This document shows, piece after piece, positions 3,306 to 10,399 of a DNA stretch of 64,000 nt. Where the stretch lies: IMG/VR virus record IMGVR_UViG_3300030329_005813, positions 62,001 through 126,000 of that record. The stretch is one strand, 5' to 3'. Both the position numbers and the translations under genes were made by a program. The notes below the pieces were generated by a model. That model was not told the origin of the DNA. It saw only the letters and a program-made list of their open reading frames with translations, and ran no database searches. The DNA comes from a virus. The stretch's first letter is position 1. Every line of letters begins with the position of its first letter.

Positions 3306-5204
3306 TTATATATCAAAGGCTTTAAGCTTATTGTCGATCCTTTCATCAACATACTGGCCCATCTCTCTTCCATCAAGCAGAAACTTAATATTGTTGACAA
3401 CTTTAACGTTTGATGCTTTAGTTTGACCAGTTGCTGTTGCTGTTGGTCCCAACGTGGCAGTACCTATTTGCGCGACAGACTCATATGCTGCTGCGGAATC
3501 AAACACTGTTTTTAACATAACGCTTTTGGCAACAGGTAACTCAGTTATAGCAGCTGCCAACTGGGAGACTCCAGAGCTGGCTTTTATAAATTGATCACCG
3601 GATAGTTCAGCCAAAGAACCAGTCAGGTCAGACATAGCATATACAAGAAGTGCTATAGCGCCAGTTGCAATCGCAACGCCTGCTCCAATTGCCAACATAA
3701 CAACTGCTAGTGGTCCTAAGGCTGGTGCGGCCGCACCCAATGCGGTAAGCCCCGCTGCAAGGCCCCCACCACCAGCAGCTGCTGCACCAAGGCCAAGACC
3801 AGAAAATACTTTTACAAGTAACATTCCTGCTGCACCAAGACCTAACATTACTCCAATTGTTTTCCGAATTGGTTCGGGCAGGTTATTAACAAGGTCTAAA
3901 ATAAACTTGAAACCTTGCACAACTGGTAGCATTGTTACCGCAAACGCCTTCATTGTTTGGTCTAGTTCTTCCATAACAGAATTAAATTCTCTATTTTGAT
4001 TCGCTAAATCTAAATACTGCTGTTGATTCATTTCGGCCGAGCCGGCTAGGTGATCAAAATTTCCGGCCATCACAAGAGCCAGTTCGCCGGCGTCTTTAAG
4101 GCCCATTGCCGAAGCAATTGCTTGACGCTCATAATACTCCATATCATCAAAGCTTTTTCCAGCATCCAATACTGCACCTTGAAGCATTCGCATACGCTCA
4201 ATAGGATCTGTTGTGGAAACCATCTCTATTGTATTTAAAAATGGTCCTCCCAGAAGGGCGTTTAGTTCACCAACAGATTTAGCTGCCGAATCAAACTGAT
4301 CAAACTGTTCAATAATAGATATAAGTTGACCAAGTTCTATATTGCTTTTGTGAGCCGAGACTGCTAAATCTAGAAATACGTCAACCGACTGATCACCAAA
4401 CTTCATCATTGTGCTGCGATGTTGTTCAAACTGCCCTAATATTTTTGAGGTTGGCAGGCCAGCATCCTGTAAAAAATTAAACATTCCGGCCTGGAGGTTG
4501 CTGGCTGCTTCGGCACTCATATTCATTCCAGCGGTCATTAAGCCCAAGTTTGCACTGAGGTCAAAAGCACCACCAGTAAATTTATCTAGAACCGCGTTTG
4601 TATTTGCTATAGATTCTTGCTGACTAGCACTTAAATCGGTAAATTGTCCAAAGTTATTGGCCAGATCAGTATAAGATTGGCCCACTTGTCCTACCGAAAC
4701 CCCGAGGCCTCGCAGAGCGCTTTCACTGTTGGCCATCTGATCGGCAAATTTACTAGCCATTCCAGTTGATTTATTAAAAGCTACCGTGGCCTCATCTAAA
4801 GCCGTAGTAAGACTCAAGCTTGTTTGAATCATACTTGTCGTTAGGGAGCCAAGTGTATTGACGGCAACACCAGCTGCTGCACTACTTTTTTCTATTTTTC
4901 CTATGGCATCCGAATAAAGAGCAGCACCAACGGAACCCGATTTCCATTTCGAGCTAATACCAGTAAGAGCATCTGAGACTGCTTCTAAAGTGTCTAATAG
5001 GTCTGTATTGGCTTCTGAAACTTTATTAAGGGCTTCCTCTTGTGCTTTAAGCTCTTGATTAAGTCTAAAGCTGGCTTTAGCAAAATCTTCAGCCGACATC
5101 TCAGTTTCATCATAAGTTTCTTTAAGAAGTCGTAGCTCTTTTTGAATTTCTGCTATTCTAGCAAGTCGTTGGATTTCTTGTTCTTTTTTTGGTCCGTTAG
5201 CCAT
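3306..5204 (-). CDS. Tail tape measure protein (short, T4 gp29-sized)
   Basis: This 632-aa protein begins with a charged coiled-coil segment (about residues 1-70, rich in Glu, Lys and Leu heptads). A long Ala/Ser/Asn-rich helical region follows, then a very hydrophobic Gly/Ala-rich stretch at about 430-525 with several potential membrane-spanning helices, and a short polar C-terminus. This architecture and its place downstream of tube and gp26-like genes are typical of tape measure proteins, which set tail length and enter the host envelope. Using the usual rule of about 1.5 Angstrom per residue, 632 aa predicts a tail near 95 nm, close to T4 (gp29, 590 aa). No lysozyme or peptidase domain is evident. 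Confidence 0.75.
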   Translation of the reverse strand: MANGPKKEQEIQRLARIAEIQKELRLLKETYDETEMSAEDFAKASFRLNQELKAQEEALNKVSEANTDLLDTLEAVSDALTGISSKWKSGSVGAALYSDAIGKIEKSSAAAGVAVNTLGSLTTSMIQTSLSLTTALDEATVAFNKSTGMASKFADQMANSESALRGLGVSVGQVGQSYTDLANNFGQFTDLSASQQESIANTNAVLDKFTGGAFDLSANLGLMTAGMNMSAEAASNLQAGMFNFLQDAGLPTSKILGQFEQHRSTMMKFGDQSVDVFLDLAVSAHKSNIELGQLISIIEQFDQFDSAAKSVGELNALLGGPFLNTIEMVSTTDPIERMRMLQGAVLDAGKSFDDMEYYERQAIASAMGLKDAGELALVMAGNFDHLAGSAEMNQQQYLDLANQNREFNSVMEELDQTMKAFAVTMLPVVQGFKFILDLVNNLPEPIRKTIGVMLGLGAAGMLLVKVFSGLGLGAAAAGGGGLAAGLTALGAAAPALGPLAVVMLAIGAGVAIATGAIALLVYAMSDLTGSLAELSGDQFIKASSGVSQLAAAITELPVAKSVMLKTVFDSAAAYESVAQIGTATLGPTATATGQTKASNVKVVNNIKFLLDGREMGQYVDERIDNKLKAFDI

Positions 5205-5214
5205 TTAAACTCTC

Positions 5215-5559
5215 CTATTTAAACGGCCATATGAGACCAGTAACTTTTTCAAAACTTTTAACTGCACTATCAAGTTTTGCTTTGTTTTTATAAGTTCTGG
5301 GATTGTCTAATCCATAATCTCTTGCTGTTTTAATATATTTGGCTTCGCTGCCCAAAGCATTTTGAAAAGATTTAATTTCTCTTGGTGTGCCACGAACTTT
5401 AAGATTCATAGAAATAAAATTTGTACCAAACATATTATCCAATACCAATTTAATTCTTGAACCAAAAGAAGACCAATAATCTTCATTAAGTTTATTTGAC
5501 CTCAGATCTTCGAAATCAATTACTACTTCTTCTAGCTTATCTTCATTAAGGTTTTGCAT
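5215..5559 (-). CDS. Hypothetical small tail-operon protein
   Basis: This 114-aa soluble protein is rich in Asn, Lys and Asp. It carries no recognised motif, signal peptide or membrane segment; a mid-section reading GTPREIKSFQNALGSEAKYI is amphipathic. It lies between the frameshift region and the tape measure gene, ending 10 nt before the latter. A candidate late-promoter motif (5582-5592) and an intrinsic terminator (5608-5631) sit directly upstream, so it appears to begin a separate transcription unit with the tape measure gene. Function unknown; an assembly role in the tail is inferred from position only. Confidence 0.6.
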   Translation of the reverse strand: MQNLNEDKLEEVVIDFEDLRSNKLNEDYWSSFGSRIKLVLDNMFGTNFISMNLKVRGTPREIKSFQNALGSEAKYIKTARDYGLDNPRTYKNKAKLDSAVKSFEKVTGLIWPFK

Positions 5560-5592: not shown

Positions 5593-5631
5593 ATCAAAAA
5601 GAAATAAGGCTGAAAGTCTTCACTTTCAGCC
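5593..5631 (-). terminator. Intrinsic terminator after gp26-like/frameshift gene
   Basis: A perfect 9-bp inverted repeat (5623-5631 with 5608-5616, 6-nt loop) is followed on the coding strand by TTATTTCTTTTT. It lies immediately after the stop of the frameshift-accessed reading frame (5633-5635), as expected for a rho-independent terminator of the sheath-tube-gp26 unit. Confidence 0.8.
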
Positions 5632-5632
5632 C

Positions 5633-5869
5633 TTAGCTACCACGTTGTGGTCCGGCCGGTGGGCCGTCGCCAACTTCGTATGTTTGACTGCCCTTGGAGG
5701 CTTTTTCCATTTGTTCTTTTTCTCTTGTTAGTTGGTCGGCCAATCTTTGCAAAAACCATCTTCGGATTGTAACTGGAAGATTATAGGCTTCTGTAAAACT
5801 CCACCCACCGTGATATTTTAATAAAAAGAACTCTTCATAAACGTTTGCTATGTATTCATTGCTTAGGCC
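5633..5869 (-). CDS. Frameshift-accessed 78-codon extension of the gp26-like protein (probable tail chaperone module)
   Basis: An open frame without its own usable start codon overlaps the end of the gp26-like gene. It lies in the +1 (equivalently -2) frame and reads G-L-S-N-E-Y-I-A-N-V then a W-S-F-T-E-A-Y-N-L-P block, ending QRGS before TAA at 5633. In this frame the first in-frame stop upstream is a TGA about 27 nt before the T7 run at 5870-5876, with no ATG or GTG between. The sequence looks protein-like and abuts a terminator. I infer it is translated as a C-terminal extension after ribosomal frameshifting at the T run, as in tail assembly chaperone pairs of many phages. A homopolymer sequencing error joining one 360-aa gene is the main alternative. 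Confidence 0.65.
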   Translation of the reverse strand, partial: GLSNEYIANVYEEFFLLKYHGGWSFTEAYNLPVTIRRWFLQRLADQLTREKEQMEKASKGSQTYEVGDGPPAGPQRGS

Positions 5870-6704
5870 AAAAAAAGTCCGCTGTAAACGGAACGGTCAC
5901 CTCCTGCTCAAATCCACAAGAGCCGCAACTATATGTTTGCGTCATATCTACATTAGGAACAACTTTTTCATAAGCTGTCCTAAGGTATCTAGAATCTCTC
6001 GCTGGTAAGCCGTTAATGAATGTCTGGATGGACTTAGAGTCTGTATGACCGTTAACTGAAACAATTAACATTCTTAATTGATCTGTTAGGCTTGACTCTG
6101 GAAGACCTCTTTTCTTTTTATTGGCAAGATGCTTGGCCAAGTATATCTCATCTTTACTGGTTAGCAATCGCACTTCAACATCCACCTTGGTCTGTGGAAG
6201 TGTAATTAAAAACCGATCATCGGAATGCTTCTTGATGGCAAAGTCTTCCCACTCGTTGCCGGCATATACATTTAGCTTTGACAGATCATATGAAAAGTCT
6301 GAAGTTGTAGTGCAGGCTGGGCAGGTTGTTTTTGTCCTATATTCTTCGCCATATCCTGTAATGCGTGCAGCAACAAGGATTGCGTTTTTATCGCCGATAT
6401 ATAATGTATTTGTATCAATTGAACGATCAACAAATATATTTTGTAGAAAACGCTCAATCGCCAAACCTTTCTTTAAAAGTGTTTTGGACGAAAGAATGTC
6501 TTCATCTTTGGCAGTCATATACCGAATTTCAACTTGGCTTACGCCATGAAGTGGATGTCCTTCGGGATAATACTGACCACCAGTAGGCAATTCAACGAAC
6601 TCTGTTGGCGTTGAAAAAGAAAAAGTAGCCTCCGATGGGCCGGTGGTAGGAACTGGATCAGCGGCTGGACGTGCGCTGAGGCGATCCTGATTATTTCTAC
6701 TCAA
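5856..6704 (-). CDS. T4 gp26-like baseplate/hub protein with zinc-binding cysteines
   Basis: This 282-aa protein resembles the T4 baseplate protein family that includes gp26 (hub assembly): an L-P-T-G-G-Q-Y-Y-P motif near residue 39, then V-E-I-R-Y-M-T-A-K-D-E-D-I-L (58-71). Two Cys pairs, C128-x2-C131 and C260-x2-C263, could bind zinc. The start is TTG at 6704, preceded by AGAGG; the next in-frame ATG would remove the conserved LP motif. It follows the tube gene closely. Its 3' end overlaps a second reading frame through a T7 run, so a shorter and a longer product are likely. Known family role: assembly of the baseplate hub; the exact function here is inferred. Confidence 0.7.
   Translation of the reverse strand: MSRNNQDRLSARPAADPVPTTGPSEATFSFSTPTEFVELPTGGQYYPEGHPLHGVSQVEIRYMTAKDEDILSSKTLLKKGLAIERFLQNIFVDRSIDTNTLYIGDKNAILVAARITGYGEEYRTKTTCPACTTTSDFSYDLSKLNVYAGNEWEDFAIKKHSDDRFLITLPQTKVDVEVRLLTSKDEIYLAKHLANKKKRGLPESSLTDQLRMLIVSVNGHTDSKSIQTFINGLPARDSRYLRTAYEKVVPNVDMTQTYSCGSCGFEQEVTVPFTADFFWPKQ
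5870..5876 (-). other. Candidate programmed-frameshift slippery site (T7)
   Basis: The coding strand reads GAC TTT TTT TGG in the gp26-like frame. A +1 or -2 shift on the seven T residues leads directly into GGC CTA AGC of the 78-codon frame. A -1 shift hits TAA after two codons, so a P2-like -1 event is excluded. Confidence 0.6.
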
Positions 6705-6742: not shown

Positions 6743-7312
6743 TTATCCGGTTGGATTAAGCTTGAAGAAGTCGTTTGTCGGGCCGGCAATACCGCTAGCT
6801 GGGTTCGCCGTAACACAATCAGCCCAATCGTATCGGAAAGTTAATGTAATTTCAACCAAACCATCTTGGTCGTATGCTAGGTCCGAATAGCTTACATTAG
6901 TAATAAAAGCTCCGTTAAGAGTCCAAGATTCTATGACTGCTCCATCAGACTGAATCATCTGAATCACAACACCGCCCAAAGCACTAACAGCGCTAGCTTT
7001 TGAGATAGTGGTGGTCTCTGTAAAGTTTCCAGGCGGTTTATAGCCAGCCCCCTGAATAATTGAAAGAGTGTTGGCTAATGCATCCGGAGAAACCGGGTCG
7101 ACCATAGTAACATCCACTGTGTTCCAGGTGACACGTCCGGGATAGTAAAAAGTATGGTTTAAAAACGCATGCTCTGAATGGTTAATCTCAAAGCTAGGTT
7201 TTTGTGCGCTTTTTGCAAACCACTGGGCTCCATCTGGCAAGTTACCTATAGTGACTAGAAATCTATATTGTCTTTTCGGATCCTGTCCAGTTGAGTCAGT
7301 CCAGAATGGCAT
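6743..7312 (-). CDS. Tail tube protein (T4 gp19-like)
   Basis: This 189-aa protein (T4 gp19 is 163 aa) has a typical tube-protein layout: an N-terminal DPKRQYRFLVTIGNLP strand, then FAKSAQKPSFEINHSEHAFLNHTFYYPGRVTW, and a C-terminal LVEITLTFRYDWADC strand. It polymerises into the inner tube through which DNA leaves the head. It sits directly after the sheath gene, the conserved sheath-tube order. ATG 7312 is preceded by AAGGAG at good spacing and by a gap motif at 7340-7350. I see nothing odd in it apart from its slight extra length. Confidence 0.9.
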   Translation of the reverse strand: MPFWTDSTGQDPKRQYRFLVTIGNLPDGAQWFAKSAQKPSFEINHSEHAFLNHTFYYPGRVTWNTVDVTMVDPVSPDALANTLSIIQGAGYKPPGNFTETTTISKASAVSALGGVVIQMIQSDGAVIESWTLNGAFITNVSYSDLAYDQDGLVEITLTFRYDWADCVTANPASGIAGPTNDFFKLNPTG

Positions 7313-7378: not shown

Positions 7379-10300
7379 TTAGTCGTCAAAAGAAGCGCCG
7401 GTGCGAGTAATCACAAAGTCAATCGCGATGTATTCGATAGCGCGGGCTGGTTTCAAGAAGATCTTGGCGTACAAGATATTTCTATCAATTAAATCTGGGG
7501 TTGTCGTTGTCTCGTCGAGAACAATCTTATACTCCGTTATTCCAAGTCTAGTCTGCACACTGGCCAAGAACGGGTCCACCTTGTTAATGAATCGAGTCCA
7601 AGTGGCCTGCACATTTTGGTCGAACAGGATCGTTGCAGCCATATAGGAAACTTCTTTCTTCAAGAAGATCATAAGGCGCCGAACATTAATTCTGTCTAGA
7701 GCCGATGGCGTAATCTGAAGTGTCTTCTGTCCGAAGACTACGATGCCTTCGGCCGGGAACTCGGCGATGGGGTTAATATTTGCTGTGTAGAGTCTATCAC
7801 GGTCCTTTCTAATCACTCGCTCGGAGACGCGTGTGACCGGAAGTCCACCAGCGCCATCAGTCAAACCACCTCTTGTAAAGCCAGCAGGCGCAAACCAAAC
7901 TTCTGATTTGGCTTCGGAGCTAGCATATGTTCCAAGCGCGATGACAGAGGGCGGTACCCAAAGAGTCTTAGCAGTATTAGGATCACGAACCTGAACCCAA
8001 GGATAGTACGTTGCAGCGTAGCTAGAGTTTAAGTCTCTGGTTCTCAAAGAATTAATAGCGCTAGTTACAGTACCCAGGTTGGCCTGAAATGATTTTGTGT
8101 TTTCCGTGAAGGGCTCATAGACATCTTCGATATCGATGACGGCCATAGCATCAGCGCGGGCCTCGCACGTATCAATAAGGTGCTTGGTGAGGTTCTTGGC
8201 AGTCAGACCAGGGATAGTCATCAAGTTAGTCTCAACAAACTCAGGATCGGCACAAGTATCAATTGCTCGCTTAACACTATTAAATGCATAGTTGTTATAC
8301 TGAGTATCTGTGGAAACTATTCTAGTATTTCTAAAAGGCTCTGCTTCGAAGATGTCAAAGCCATCAAAACCACCATACAGAGGCGAGGTAAACCGGTCAT
8401 AACCTTCAGTTAAAATCTGCTTATAAGAAGAACTCATAGCCGTAAGCGAGTCGCCATCTCTTCTAGAACCAGACTGAAAGAACGCAGACGGCGCGATATC
8501 GCCATCAATAACAGTTCTCACGTCGTCCAATGAAAAGACCCAAGAATACGCACGGTCAGTTGGTGGGCCGGCTAAAGTATCAACCTGTCCATAACCAGCT
8601 GGAAGGCGACGAAGATAGTCAGGATAGCCAGGATCGTAGTTCGCGTCTGTGTGCGACTTGCCTGTCTGAAGGCCAAAGTAGGCCTCCTTGGGGTCGCCCA
8701 TAGTACCGTCAGAAGCTGAGATTCGGAATAAAGTTCTTGGAAACTCATAGGATGCCGTGTACTGTGAGCAGCCGGTGGCGCCTTGATCCGAATGGACAAA
8801 GCTCTGCGGTCCATGCCTATCGTTATGAGATGCAACAAAGTCCTTGTCAAAACAGACGAAAGAAGAGCCAAGCTGCACACCTGCATTAAAATCAGTATTA
8901 TAAATCTGGGTGGCAGTTGCAACGGTTTTGTCTTGATTTCCAACATTTGTTTTGATTTGAATTCCGGTAGGTCGAATGGGTCCAAAGACGCCGAACGGAA
9001 GAAGCTCAGAATCAGACATTTGGCCCTGGGCAACAGCAGGGTTCATTTCAATTCTTACATACCTGGACTGGTTGACAAACTCACCATACTCACGAAGGCG
9101 ATTTGTTGAATAATCAAAGGCCATATACATATCACCAACTTTTGCAGCAACATAGTCGGCTGAAGCCGGATTTAAACTACAGTTAGTAAATTGCTCTAAG
9201 ATATCAAGTTTGTTGTCGCGATCTGATGCTTTTCTAATTTGTACTGTAAATGAACCAAACGGGTTAGATAAACTGGTCGGAGCCTTAATGTCAGCAATAG
9301 AAATCTTAATATTATTTTGCAACCACTCTCCGCTGTCCAAGCCGTGAAACTTAAACAACTTAGTCATACGCTCGGCGGCGTAGTGTGTATTATCGGTTGA
9401 AAGATCCTGTGAGAAGAACCAACCGGTTTCAGGATTCTTGAATCCCTCGCGGTGATCTTCATACCCGACAACGATACTACCGGATGAATTTTCAAAAGAT
9501 CCACTTGACAGTGGCGCGATAAATCCATAAGATTCGCCAGAGGTACCGCAAACATTAAACAAGTGGCTTTCAAAAGTTTCACCAAGAAAGTAATTACCCC
9601 TGCCTTCCGTAACAGTCGTTGAATCAACAACACTAGTGTTGGTAAGGATTGGATCGGTGTTGAAAACCTTGCGAATGTAGTTTTCTGAGTTCCTATCAAA
9701 ATTAAATTTTGTGGTATAAAGCGGGCTATATGACGTATCTAAAATTTGAGCCTGGAAGGTGTAGCTGGAGTCTTCGGAGTTAATCATAACAGCAGCGCCC
9801 GTAACAGCAGACACATCGGACTGGGGTTGTGAAGAAGCTTGCTTACCTTTAAGAACAATTGCTCCGTCTCGTATATACCAAACAGCTGCCAGAGAGCCAG
9901 TACCTAGTGAGACATCAGGACCAATATTGCCTGATGGGACAATAAATAAACCATAAGCACCACCATTATCGCTAAGTGTTTCCGATGGATTCTTAGCAGT
10001 TCCGGCGGCTGTTTCTGTTCCGGTTGTTGTTGTCCAGCCAGCTTGACCAGCGGTCGTGGCTTGATCGTGCTCATCACCAAGAAGACGAAAAATGTTTGCA
10101 GGAGCCACGCCGGCATTCAACCAAGCAAAAGCAGCGTAAGCAGCATACGTTGGACCGGTCTTATTTCCTTCACGCCAAGTATCACCAGAAGAAGCACCAG
10201 GGATTGGATTACCAAATGTCTCAACAAATTCAGCCAAAGAGCTAACCTTGTAAGGTCTCATCGCCGGACCTTGTGCATATCGTCCGATAATCGTTGGTCC

Positions 10301-10399
10301 CATAGCATCGGGAAGTCTTGGTAACTGTGAGTTATCAACTTCGCGAAGGAAGATGCCCGGGGATACGAATCTAAACTTTCTAGCTAATGATGATGACAT
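7379..10399 (-). CDS. Tail sheath protein (T4 gp18-like, enlarged)
   Basis: This 1006-aa contractile sheath subunit is well above the 659 aa of T4 gp18. The N-terminus (about residues 1-75: VSPGIFLREVDNS, then GPTIIGRYAQGPAM and LAEFVETFGNP) and the C-terminal third (QKTLQITPSALDRINVRRL, then the closing YKIVLDETTTTPDLIDRN block) match the sheath core. The middle carries several hundred extra residues that probably form surface-exposed domains. It is placed before the tube gene. ATG 10399 has an ACAGGAGAG ribosome-binding site and a long leader of about 65 nt after a candidate promoter motif that lies in a hairpin loop. Confidence 0.93.
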   Translation of the reverse strand: MSSSLARKFRFVSPGIFLREVDNSQLPRLPDAMGPTIIGRYAQGPAMRPYKVSSLAEFVETFGNPIPGASSGDTWREGNKTGPTYAAYAAFAWLNAGVAPANIFRLLGDEHDQATTAGQAGWTTTTGTETAAGTAKNPSETLSDNGGAYGLFIVPSGNIGPDVSLGTGSLAAVWYIRDGAIVLKGKQASSQPQSDVSAVTGAAVMINSEDSSYTFQAQILDTSYSPLYTTKFNFDRNSENYIRKVFNTDPILTNTSVVDSTTVTEGRGNYFLGETFESHLFNVCGTSGESYGFIAPLSSGSFENSSGSIVVGYEDHREGFKNPETGWFFSQDLSTDNTHYAAERMTKLFKFHGLDSGEWLQNNIKISIADIKAPTSLSNPFGSFTVQIRKASDRDNKLDILEQFTNCSLNPASADYVAAKVGDMYMAFDYSTNRLREYGEFVNQSRYVRIEMNPAVAQGQMSDSELLPFGVFGPIRPTGIQIKTNVGNQDKTVATATQIYNTDFNAGVQLGSSFVCFDKDFVASHNDRHGPQSFVHSDQGATGCSQYTASYEFPRTLFRISASDGTMGDPKEAYFGLQTGKSHTDANYDPGYPDYLRRLPAGYGQVDTLAGPPTDRAYSWVFSLDDVRTVIDGDIAPSAFFQSGSRRDGDSLTAMSSSYKQILTEGYDRFTSPLYGGFDGFDIFEAEPFRNTRIVSTDTQYNNYAFNSVKRAIDTCADPEFVETNLMTIPGLTAKNLTKHLIDTCEARADAMAVIDIEDVYEPFTENTKSFQANLGTVTSAINSLRTRDLNSSYAATYYPWVQVRDPNTAKTLWVPPSVIALGTYASSEAKSEVWFAPAGFTRGGLTDGAGGLPVTRVSERVIRKDRDRLYTANINPIAEFPAEGIVVFGQKTLQITPSALDRINVRRLMIFLKKEVSYMAATILFDQNVQATWTRFINKVDPFLASVQTRLGITEYKIVLDETTTTPDLIDRNILYAKIFLKPARAIEYIAIDFVITRTGASFDD

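What the first reader, a model, noticed from the sequence alone, without database searches (positions are those of the whole stretch)
5633..6704. Hidden reading frame and probable +1/-2 frameshift in the gp26-like gene
The gp26-like frame ends just after a run of seven T on the coding strand (5870-5876). A +1 or -2 shift there opens a 78-codon frame (5869-5633) with protein-like content that has no start codon of its own and ends right before a terminator. A -1 shift would stop after two codons. Frameshifted tail-assembly chaperone pairs are well known (lambda G/GT at -1, Mu reported at -2), but the gp26-like host gene and the T7 context are unusual.
Basis: partly seen in the sequence, partly recalled or inferred. 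Interest (0 to 1): 0.75.

Follow-up and report, generated by a model that had tools for sequence, protein, structure and literature searches.

The report
Frameshift makes two tail-assembly chaperones
A large marine virus of bacteria appears to make a short and a long version of one tail-building helper protein from a single gene by skipping one base at a run of seven Ts, a trick that hundreds of related viruses keep and that sits right after a small RNA hairpin whose role is new and testable.

Summary
On the minus strand a T4-gp26-like gene (5856-6704) ends four codons after TTTTTTT (5876-5870). The +1 frame then opens a 78-codon extension (5869-5633) that has no start codon and stops at a terminator. 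It is not a sequencing error: 79 of 80 fetched close relatives keep the junction and the +1 extension.

Among 294 distinct gp26-family 3' ends, about 213 carry the extension in +1 and about 75 in -1. The +1 members keep a P-site codon that can re-pair one base downstream (UUU-U, UUU-C or CUU-U). Two relatives that switched to -1 have gained canonical -1 heptamers.

This is the T4-type tail assembly chaperone pair (short TAC-N, long TAC-NC), lying between tail tube and tape measure. The extension is homologous to 'gp51' of cyanophages and, through it, to the C-terminus of T4 gp51. That T4 gp26/gp51 are TACs is published (Vladimirov 2022, title seen only). I found no report of the +1 version.

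New here: a hairpin directly 5' of the slip site, maintained against synonymous change in +1 lineages and absent in the -1 lineage. Ribosomal +1 slippage is favoured; hairpin-driven transcriptional slippage is the live rival; -2 is unlikely. Nothing here is experimental.

The parts
5856..6704 (-). gp26-like gene, zero frame (TAC-N, 282 aa, TTG start with AGAGGT upstream); stop TGA at 5858-5856
   Evidence: Pfam PF12322 T4_baseplate 54.9 bits, cut-off 24.5, E 1.2e-14; PHROG 150 baseplate hub, E 8.5e-16; only PF12322 match in the 172-kb record
5878..5892 (-). RNA hairpin UCCGUUUACAGCGGA, 1 nt 5' of the T7 run (candidate stimulator)
   Evidence: -5.5 kcal/mol; for this single sequence shuffle z only -1.26. 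Family signal: 91 sequences, -4.81 vs -1.53 kcal/mol synonymous control at the slip site, other windows sd 0.28
5870..5876 (-). slippery run TTTTTTT; proposed P-site codon UUU 5873-5871 re-pairing to UUU 5872-5870
   Evidence: 154 of 210 +1 sequences have TTT TTT TGG; the others keep UUU-U, UUU-C or CUU-U
5633..5869 (-). +1-frame extension (78 aa, gp51-like C-terminal domain of TAC-NC), no start codon
   Evidence: hhalign to cyanophage -1 extensions Prob 96.7, E 3.7e-10; shuffle control; three helices, pLDDT 89-97 over residues 1-60
5606..5633 (-). intrinsic-terminator-like hairpin at the end of the extension
   Evidence: 12 bp stem then ATTTCTTTTT
6743..7312 (-). tail tube protein, directly upstream (context)
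   Evidence: PHROG 4542 tail tube, E 8.5e-22
5215..5559 (-). 114-aa protein of unknown function between the extension and the tape measure gene
   Evidence: No family at E < 0.04
3306..5204 (-). tail length tape measure protein (context)
   Evidence: PHROG 1533, E 2.4e-6

Best explanation
[quoted passage not shown] Most ribosomes stop at TGA 5858-5856 and release the short form (gp26-like, TAC-N, 282 aa). A minority slip +1 when tRNA-Phe in the P site re-pairs from UUU to the overlapping UUU within U7, next to a hairpin just 5' of the run, and continue through 78 more codons to give the long form (TAC-NC, 356 aa). As with lambda gpG/gpGT, many short and few long copies would coat the tape measure protein, and the long form's C-terminal domain would recruit tube subunits. 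Supported by comparative sequence evidence: the gene family, the homologous extension, its coding constraint, its linkage to the gene by frame only, the position and the maintained hairpin. Inferred: that the ribosome and not RNA polymerase slips, that the hairpin stimulates it, the product ratio, and the chaperone mechanism in this phage. My probabilities: a programmed frame change making two forms 0.95; ribosomal +1 as the main route 0.65.
For: Extension kept in +1 in 79/80 close relatives. 294 distinct 3' ends: 210 classed +1 automatically, plus L191, L223, L233 on inspection; the +1 members keep a re-pairing site (TTT TTT TGG 154, TTT TTT TAC 26, TTC TTT TGG 10, TTT CTT TGG 5, TTC TTT CGT 3 and rarer ones). 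CUU-U is the RF2 shift site, and UUU and CCC are described as the next most slippery codons there (PMC10274946). Members with the T run broken keep frame and extension, and 8/8 distinct TTCTTTTGG contexts keep a hairpin of -3 kcal/mol or better. Polarity switches to -1 gain canonical heptamers: L035 U_UUU_UUU, L217 A_AAU_UUC; at least 4 changes on a 162-row tree, 3 forced by starred branches. 68 cyanophage-like sequences use -1, nearly all at U_UUU_UUC or U_UUU_UUA. No separate gp51 paralogue in the record. +1 extension homologous to the -1 extension, and that to the T4 gp51 C-terminus. Cultured phages with the same +1 arrangement: Mel-JY01, immuto, SP-15, LIS04, GXN1, RM378.
Against: No peptide, reporter or RNA data. 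The A-site codon is UGG, not a stop codon, and I found no SD-like stimulator at RF2 spacing. TTT is favoured at the first Phe codon too (66/72, binomial p 5e-4, not corrected for phylogeny), more than a single P-site slip needs. A hairpin directly 5' of a U run is also the layout of stem-loop-driven transcriptional slippage (PMC5009743). About a third of T7 members have a weak or no predicted hairpin.
Confidence: 0.65

Rival explanations
1. Hairpin-driven transcriptional slippage. The nascent hairpin 5892-5878 pushes RNA polymerase forward on T7, a fraction of mRNAs has U6, and normal translation of these gives the long form.
For: Same layout as the Roseiflexus IS630 case: stem loop directly 5' of U5C5, transcripts lacking one base (PMC5009743). 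Hairpin maintained in +1 groups: -3.28 kcal/mol below the synonymous control in the window group, -2.15 and -1.41 in the two next groups, and absent (-0.10) in the -1 group. Both Phe codons prefer TTT.
Against: Members without a T run longer than 4 (TTCTTTTGG, TTTCTTTGG, TTCTTTCGT) keep the +1 extension; forward slippage there would need an rC:dA mismatch, which the review calls prohibitive. These same members all keep a ribosomal re-pairing site.
Confidence: 0.25
2. Ribosomal -2 frameshifting at U7, as reported for phage Mu; the long form would have one extra Phe.
For: -2 re-pairing UUU to UUU is possible on TTT TTT T and gives the same frame; Mu precedent (PMC5009743).
Against: TTC TTT TGG and TTC TTT CGT members would re-pair on UCU, which tRNA-Phe cannot read, yet keep the extension.
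Confidence: 0.04
3. The extension is a separate small gene with its own start, or is reached by translational coupling.
For: Public annotation calls it a separate ORF in several phages; some relatives have ATG/GTG/TTG in frame.
Against: No start position is conserved; 12 of 72 distinct sequences, the window included, have no ATG/GTG/TTG between the last in-frame stop and the conserved part. It would not explain why the slippery codon is kept and swaps with canonical -1 sites when the frame swaps.
Confidence: 0.02
4. Sequencing or assembly error: the run is really six T and the gene is one continuous frame.
For: Homopolymer runs are error-prone; a six-T version would be one open frame.
Against: Same arrangement in dozens of independent assemblies and several cultured isolates, including versions with the run interrupted by C, which are not homopolymer errors.
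Confidence: 0.01

Closest known systems
T4 gp26 and gp51 (hub assembly chaperones; identified as T4-type TACs by Vladimirov, Gautam and Davidson 2022, Virology 566:9-15, seen as a citation in PMC12846349 and PMC10274946)
   Same: Same Pfam family PF12322; gp51 is a gp26 paralogue with a C-terminal extension homologous, through cyanophage intermediates, to the one here.
   Different: T4 has two separate genes; here one gene yields both forms by a frame change.
Cyanophage and other T4-like gp26 followed by annotated 'gp51' (P-HM1, S-RIM8, S-SKS1, Melnitz, Milchi, phiAS5)
   Same: Homologous gene and extension, linked by frame only, in the same order.
   Different: -1 shift at U_UUU_UUC or U_UUU_UUA (U_UUU_UUU in Melnitz), and no 5' hairpin signal in the cyanophage-like set tested. 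PMC12846349 says poly-T -1 sites of T4-like TAC-N genes are already known.
Lambda gpG/gpGT and other G/GT chaperones
   Same: Short and frameshift-extended long form, encoded upstream of the tape measure gene.
   Different: -1 at a canonical heptamer in lambda; no sequence similarity was tested.
+1 cases: RF2 prfB (CUU_U stop), Listeria phage PSA tail and capsid genes, haloarchaeal myovirus HSTV-2 (TAC, very likely +1)
   Same: +1 access; in RF2 the P-site tRNA re-pairs one base downstream.
   Different: RF2 uses a stop codon in the A site and an SD-like stimulator; here the A-site codon is UGG or UAC and a hairpin lies just 5'.
Roseiflexus IS630 stem-loop-dependent transcriptional slippage
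   Same: Stem loop immediately 5' of a U-rich slippage motif; access to the +1 frame by loss of one base.
   Different: RNA polymerase slips there; members here with broken runs do not fit its mismatch rules.

Membership tests
T4-type tail assembly chaperone (PF12322) | Score above the curated Pfam cut-off over most of the model | tested here: met
   54.9 bits vs 24.5, positions 7-219 of 219
T4-type tail assembly chaperone (PF12322) | Encoded between tail tube and tape measure genes | tested here: met
   Tube 6743-7312 upstream, tape measure 3306-5204 downstream; same order in Mel-JY01, immuto, SP-15 and LIS04 by annotation
[quoted passage not shown]
   Comparative sequence evidence only
TAC pair of the G/GT kind | Both forms made in a fixed ratio, absent from the virion, binding tape measure and tube | not testable with these tools
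   Needs proteomics and binding assays
T4 gp51 C-terminal domain | Extension homologous to gp51 residues after the PF12322 part | tested here: met
   Via intermediates: +1 to -1 extensions score 48.8, -1 to gp51 C-terminus 52.0; column-shuffle maxima 16.1. The direct comparison of +1 extensions with gp51 is not significant
Pfam DUF6760 (PF20546) | Score above the curated cut-off | tested here: not met
   21.6 bits vs 27; 18 of 56 relatives match at E <= 0.01
Canonical -1 programmed frameshift | -1 frame open after an X_XXY_YYZ heptamer | tested here: not met
   -1 frame stops after two codons in the window; met in the cyanophage group, L035 and L217
-2 frameshift as in Mu | P-site tRNA can re-pair two bases upstream in all members | tested here: not met
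   TTC TTT TGG and TTC TTT CGT members land on UCU
RF2-type +1 frameshift | P-site re-pairing one base downstream | tested here: met
   UUU-U, UUU-C or CUU-U available in the +1 sequences; for LIS04 and LR756508 via the preceding Phe codon
RF2-type +1 frameshift | Stop codon in the A site | tested here: not met
   UGG in most, UAC in 27 sequences
Stem-loop-driven transcriptional slippage | Stem loop directly 5' of the slippage run | tested here: met
Stem-loop-driven transcriptional slippage | RNA can realign one base forward without an rC:dA mismatch | tested here: inconclusive
   True for T7 members; false for TTCTTTTGG, TTTCTTTGG and TTCTTTCGT members
Stem-loop-driven transcriptional slippage | Transcripts one base short | not testable with these tools
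   Needs RNA sequencing

The most novel reading that the evidence does not exclude
The 5'-adjacent hairpin is the driver of the frame change: either a ribosomal +1 stimulator standing where an SD helix stands in RF2, or a nascent-RNA hairpin that makes RNA polymerase drop one U. Either would be a decoding signal not, as far as I found, described for phage tail chaperones, and it is gained or lost with the direction of the shift.
Probability: 0.55. Interest if true: 0.72.

Novelty: new variant of a known kind. Interest (0 to 1): 0.57.

Why it matters
Tail length and assembly in long-tailed phages depend on a short/long chaperone pair. [quoted passage not shown] Here a widespread T4-type lineage makes the pair from one gene by a +1 shift, while cyanophages do it by -1 and T4 with two genes: three solutions for one protein pair. 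Natural switches of direction within the family, together with gain or loss of a hairpin beside the slip site, give a ready-made set of natural variants for asking what sets frameshift direction and whether ribosome or polymerase slips. Practically, public records split or truncate the long form into spurious small ORFs.

Tried and rejected
Conserved RNA structure downstream of, or spanning, the junction: none by consensus folding; the hairpin was missed there because its register and sequence differ between members. Column-wise covariation in one fixed register: not significant. Direct hhalign of the extension with T4 gp51: not significant with shallow alignments and still not with deep ones; only the route through cyanophage extensions works. 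DUF6760 in whole genomes and in plasmids, as a way to bacterial contractile systems: nothing; that link stays untested. Foldseek of the modelled extension: no PDB relative; best viral hits include P-HM1 gp51 (prob 0.98 but E 0.28) and two annotated tail/tape-measure chaperones, too short for good E-values. Predicting the fused protein: the tool does not accept the four-letter reading used, so only the extension was modelled. Chance open frame: most long off-frame extensions at other gene ends in the window reach into a downstream gene, so length alone is no evidence. L191, L223 and L233 were classed -1 by length and re-read by hand as +1.

Full report
What is there. On the minus strand the gp26-like gene 5856-6704 reads ...ACA GCG GAC TTT TTT TGG CCT AAG CAA TGA. 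A +1 (or -2) shift at the T7 run 5876-5870 opens 78 codons to 5633 without any start codon; a -1 shift stops after two codons. A terminator follows directly. The window is part of a 172,361-bp virus record, with only one PF12322 gene.

Which gene. The zero-frame product matches PF12322 T4_baseplate well above its cut-off. T4 gp26 and gp51 both belong to that family. The gene lies between tail tube and tape measure, the place of lambda G/GT and of tail assembly chaperones (TACs) in general. [quoted passage not shown] A 2022 paper by Vladimirov and colleagues identifies the TACs of T4-like phages; I could not read it, only its title and what two papers say of it (PMC12846349, PMC10274946).

Conservation. 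The close relatives keep the junction: 79 of 80 with the extension in +1, and L035 with it in -1. By codon position in the +1 frame the extension diverges 0.29/0.15/0.55, so it is coding in that frame. The second Phe codon is TTT in 72/72 distinct sequences against 76% elsewhere; taken as independent this has p 2e-9, but the sequences share ancestry. No start codon position is conserved.

A wider set. With loci from further searches and annotated phages, 294 distinct 3' ends were classed automatically: 210 as +1, 79 as -1, 5 cut off or unclear. On inspection three of the -1 calls (L191, L223, L233) are +1, and L280 is unclear. The +1 members re-pair at UUU-U, UUU-C or CUU-U; for LIS04 and LR756508 only the preceding Phe codon does. 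The -1 members are mainly cyanophage-like and use U_UUU_UUC or U_UUU_UUA. Their extensions are annotated, from an internal start, as 'gp51 baseplate hub assembly catalyst'. On a quick tree of 162 proteins the direction changed at least four times, three of them forced by starred branches; some deep branches there are long and unsure. Two switches are clear from sequence: L035 has U_UUU_UUU and has lost the stop that blocks -1 in its relatives; L217 has TTC TTC in place of the +1 site and A_AAU_UUC before it.

Homology of the extension. Profile comparison links +1 extensions to -1 extensions (Prob 96.7, E 3.7e-10) and these to the C-terminal part of T4 gp51 (Prob 97.1, E 6.6e-11), both far above column-shuffled and reversed controls. 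The E-values are for single comparisons. AlphaFold2 gives three helices at pLDDT 89-97 over the first 60 residues. One relative matches PHROG 634, 'baseplate hub assembly catalyst'. T4 gene 26 itself has no such extension; its stop overlaps the start of gene 25.

The hairpin. A terminator-like hairpin, UCCGUUUACAGCGGA at 5892-5878, ends one base before T7. For the window sequence alone it is unremarkable (shuffle z -1.26). Across the family it is not: the 20 bases before the slip site fold to -4.81 kcal/mol against -1.53 for synonymous recodings in 91 sequences, while windows further upstream differ by -0.15 on average with sd 0.28. The Mel-like and immuto-like groups show it too (differences -2.15 and -1.41), the small SP-15/GXN1 group only weakly (-0.97, sd 0.41), the -1 cyanophage group not at all (-0.10). 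Many different structures and sequences serve (87 structures). All 8 distinct TTCTTTTGG contexts have it at -3 kcal/mol or better; L217 has none and L035 a weak one. The control keeps amino acids and gene codon usage but not phylogeny; the neighbouring windows share that phylogeny and serve as the comparison.

Mechanism. A hairpin directly 5' of a U run is the layout of stem-loop-driven transcriptional slippage in a Roseiflexus IS, which drops one base (PMC5009743). For T7 members this cannot be excluded. Members whose run is broken by C keep the +1 extension, the hairpin in most cases, and a ribosomal re-pairing site, while polymerase realignment there would need an rC:dA mismatch. I therefore favour ribosomal +1 slippage with a 5' hairpin as stimulator (0.65) over transcriptional slippage (0.25). 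-2 is disfavoured because TTC TTT members cannot re-pair. How a hairpin so close to the P site acts is inference; it would occupy about the place of the SD helix in RF2.

Novelty. Known: frameshifted TAC pairs with -1, -2 or +1 in different phages (PMC5009743); T4-like TACs and their poly-T -1 sites (PMC12846349). Not found in the literature held here: the +1 version in the gp26 family, the switches of direction within it, and the upstream hairpin. The ten paper searches covered open-access full text only. Verdict: new variant of a known kind.

Noticed in passing
L035:4001-5743 and L217:1501-2400: Two relatives carry the extension in the -1 frame with canonical -1 heptamers (U_UUU_UUU; A_AAU_UUC) inside otherwise +1 clades: natural switches of frameshift direction.
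   Followed up: yes
L107, L108, L109, L110, L111, L106 (phage records): Annotated 'gp51 baseplate hub assembly catalyst' or 'baseplate hub assembly' ORFs of 40-60 aa look like the 3' part of a frameshift extension of gp26, not separate genes; PHROG 634 and perhaps PHROGs 20255 and 28244 may be made of such fragments.
   Followed up: partly
L103 (LR756511, 595-kb uncultured phage) and L105 (Xanthomonas phage XacN1): gp26-like genes with a -1-frame extension after G_GGU_UUU and U_UUU_UUU respectively; L103 groups with +1 phages on the tree, a possible further switch, though its branch is long.
   Followed up: partly
L112 (Ackermannviridae) and L113 (Vibrio phage D506): Extension lies in the -1 frame but without a clear tandem heptamer; in L113 an ATG overlaps the gp26 stop (TAATG), so reinitiation is possible there.
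   Followed up: no
window 5215-5559 (-): 114-aa protein between the extension and the tape measure gene with no recognisable family.
   Followed up: no
window 7379-10399 (-): Tail sheath of 1006 aa, longer than the PHROG 23 sheath profile (496 positions), which matches only its C-terminal third.
   Followed up: no
L275 and L276 (NHDW01000006.1, 305,838 bp, labelled Methylococcaceae MAG): The contig has gp26-like matches near both ends; it may be a phage contig with duplicated ends binned into a bacterial MAG.
   Followed up: no
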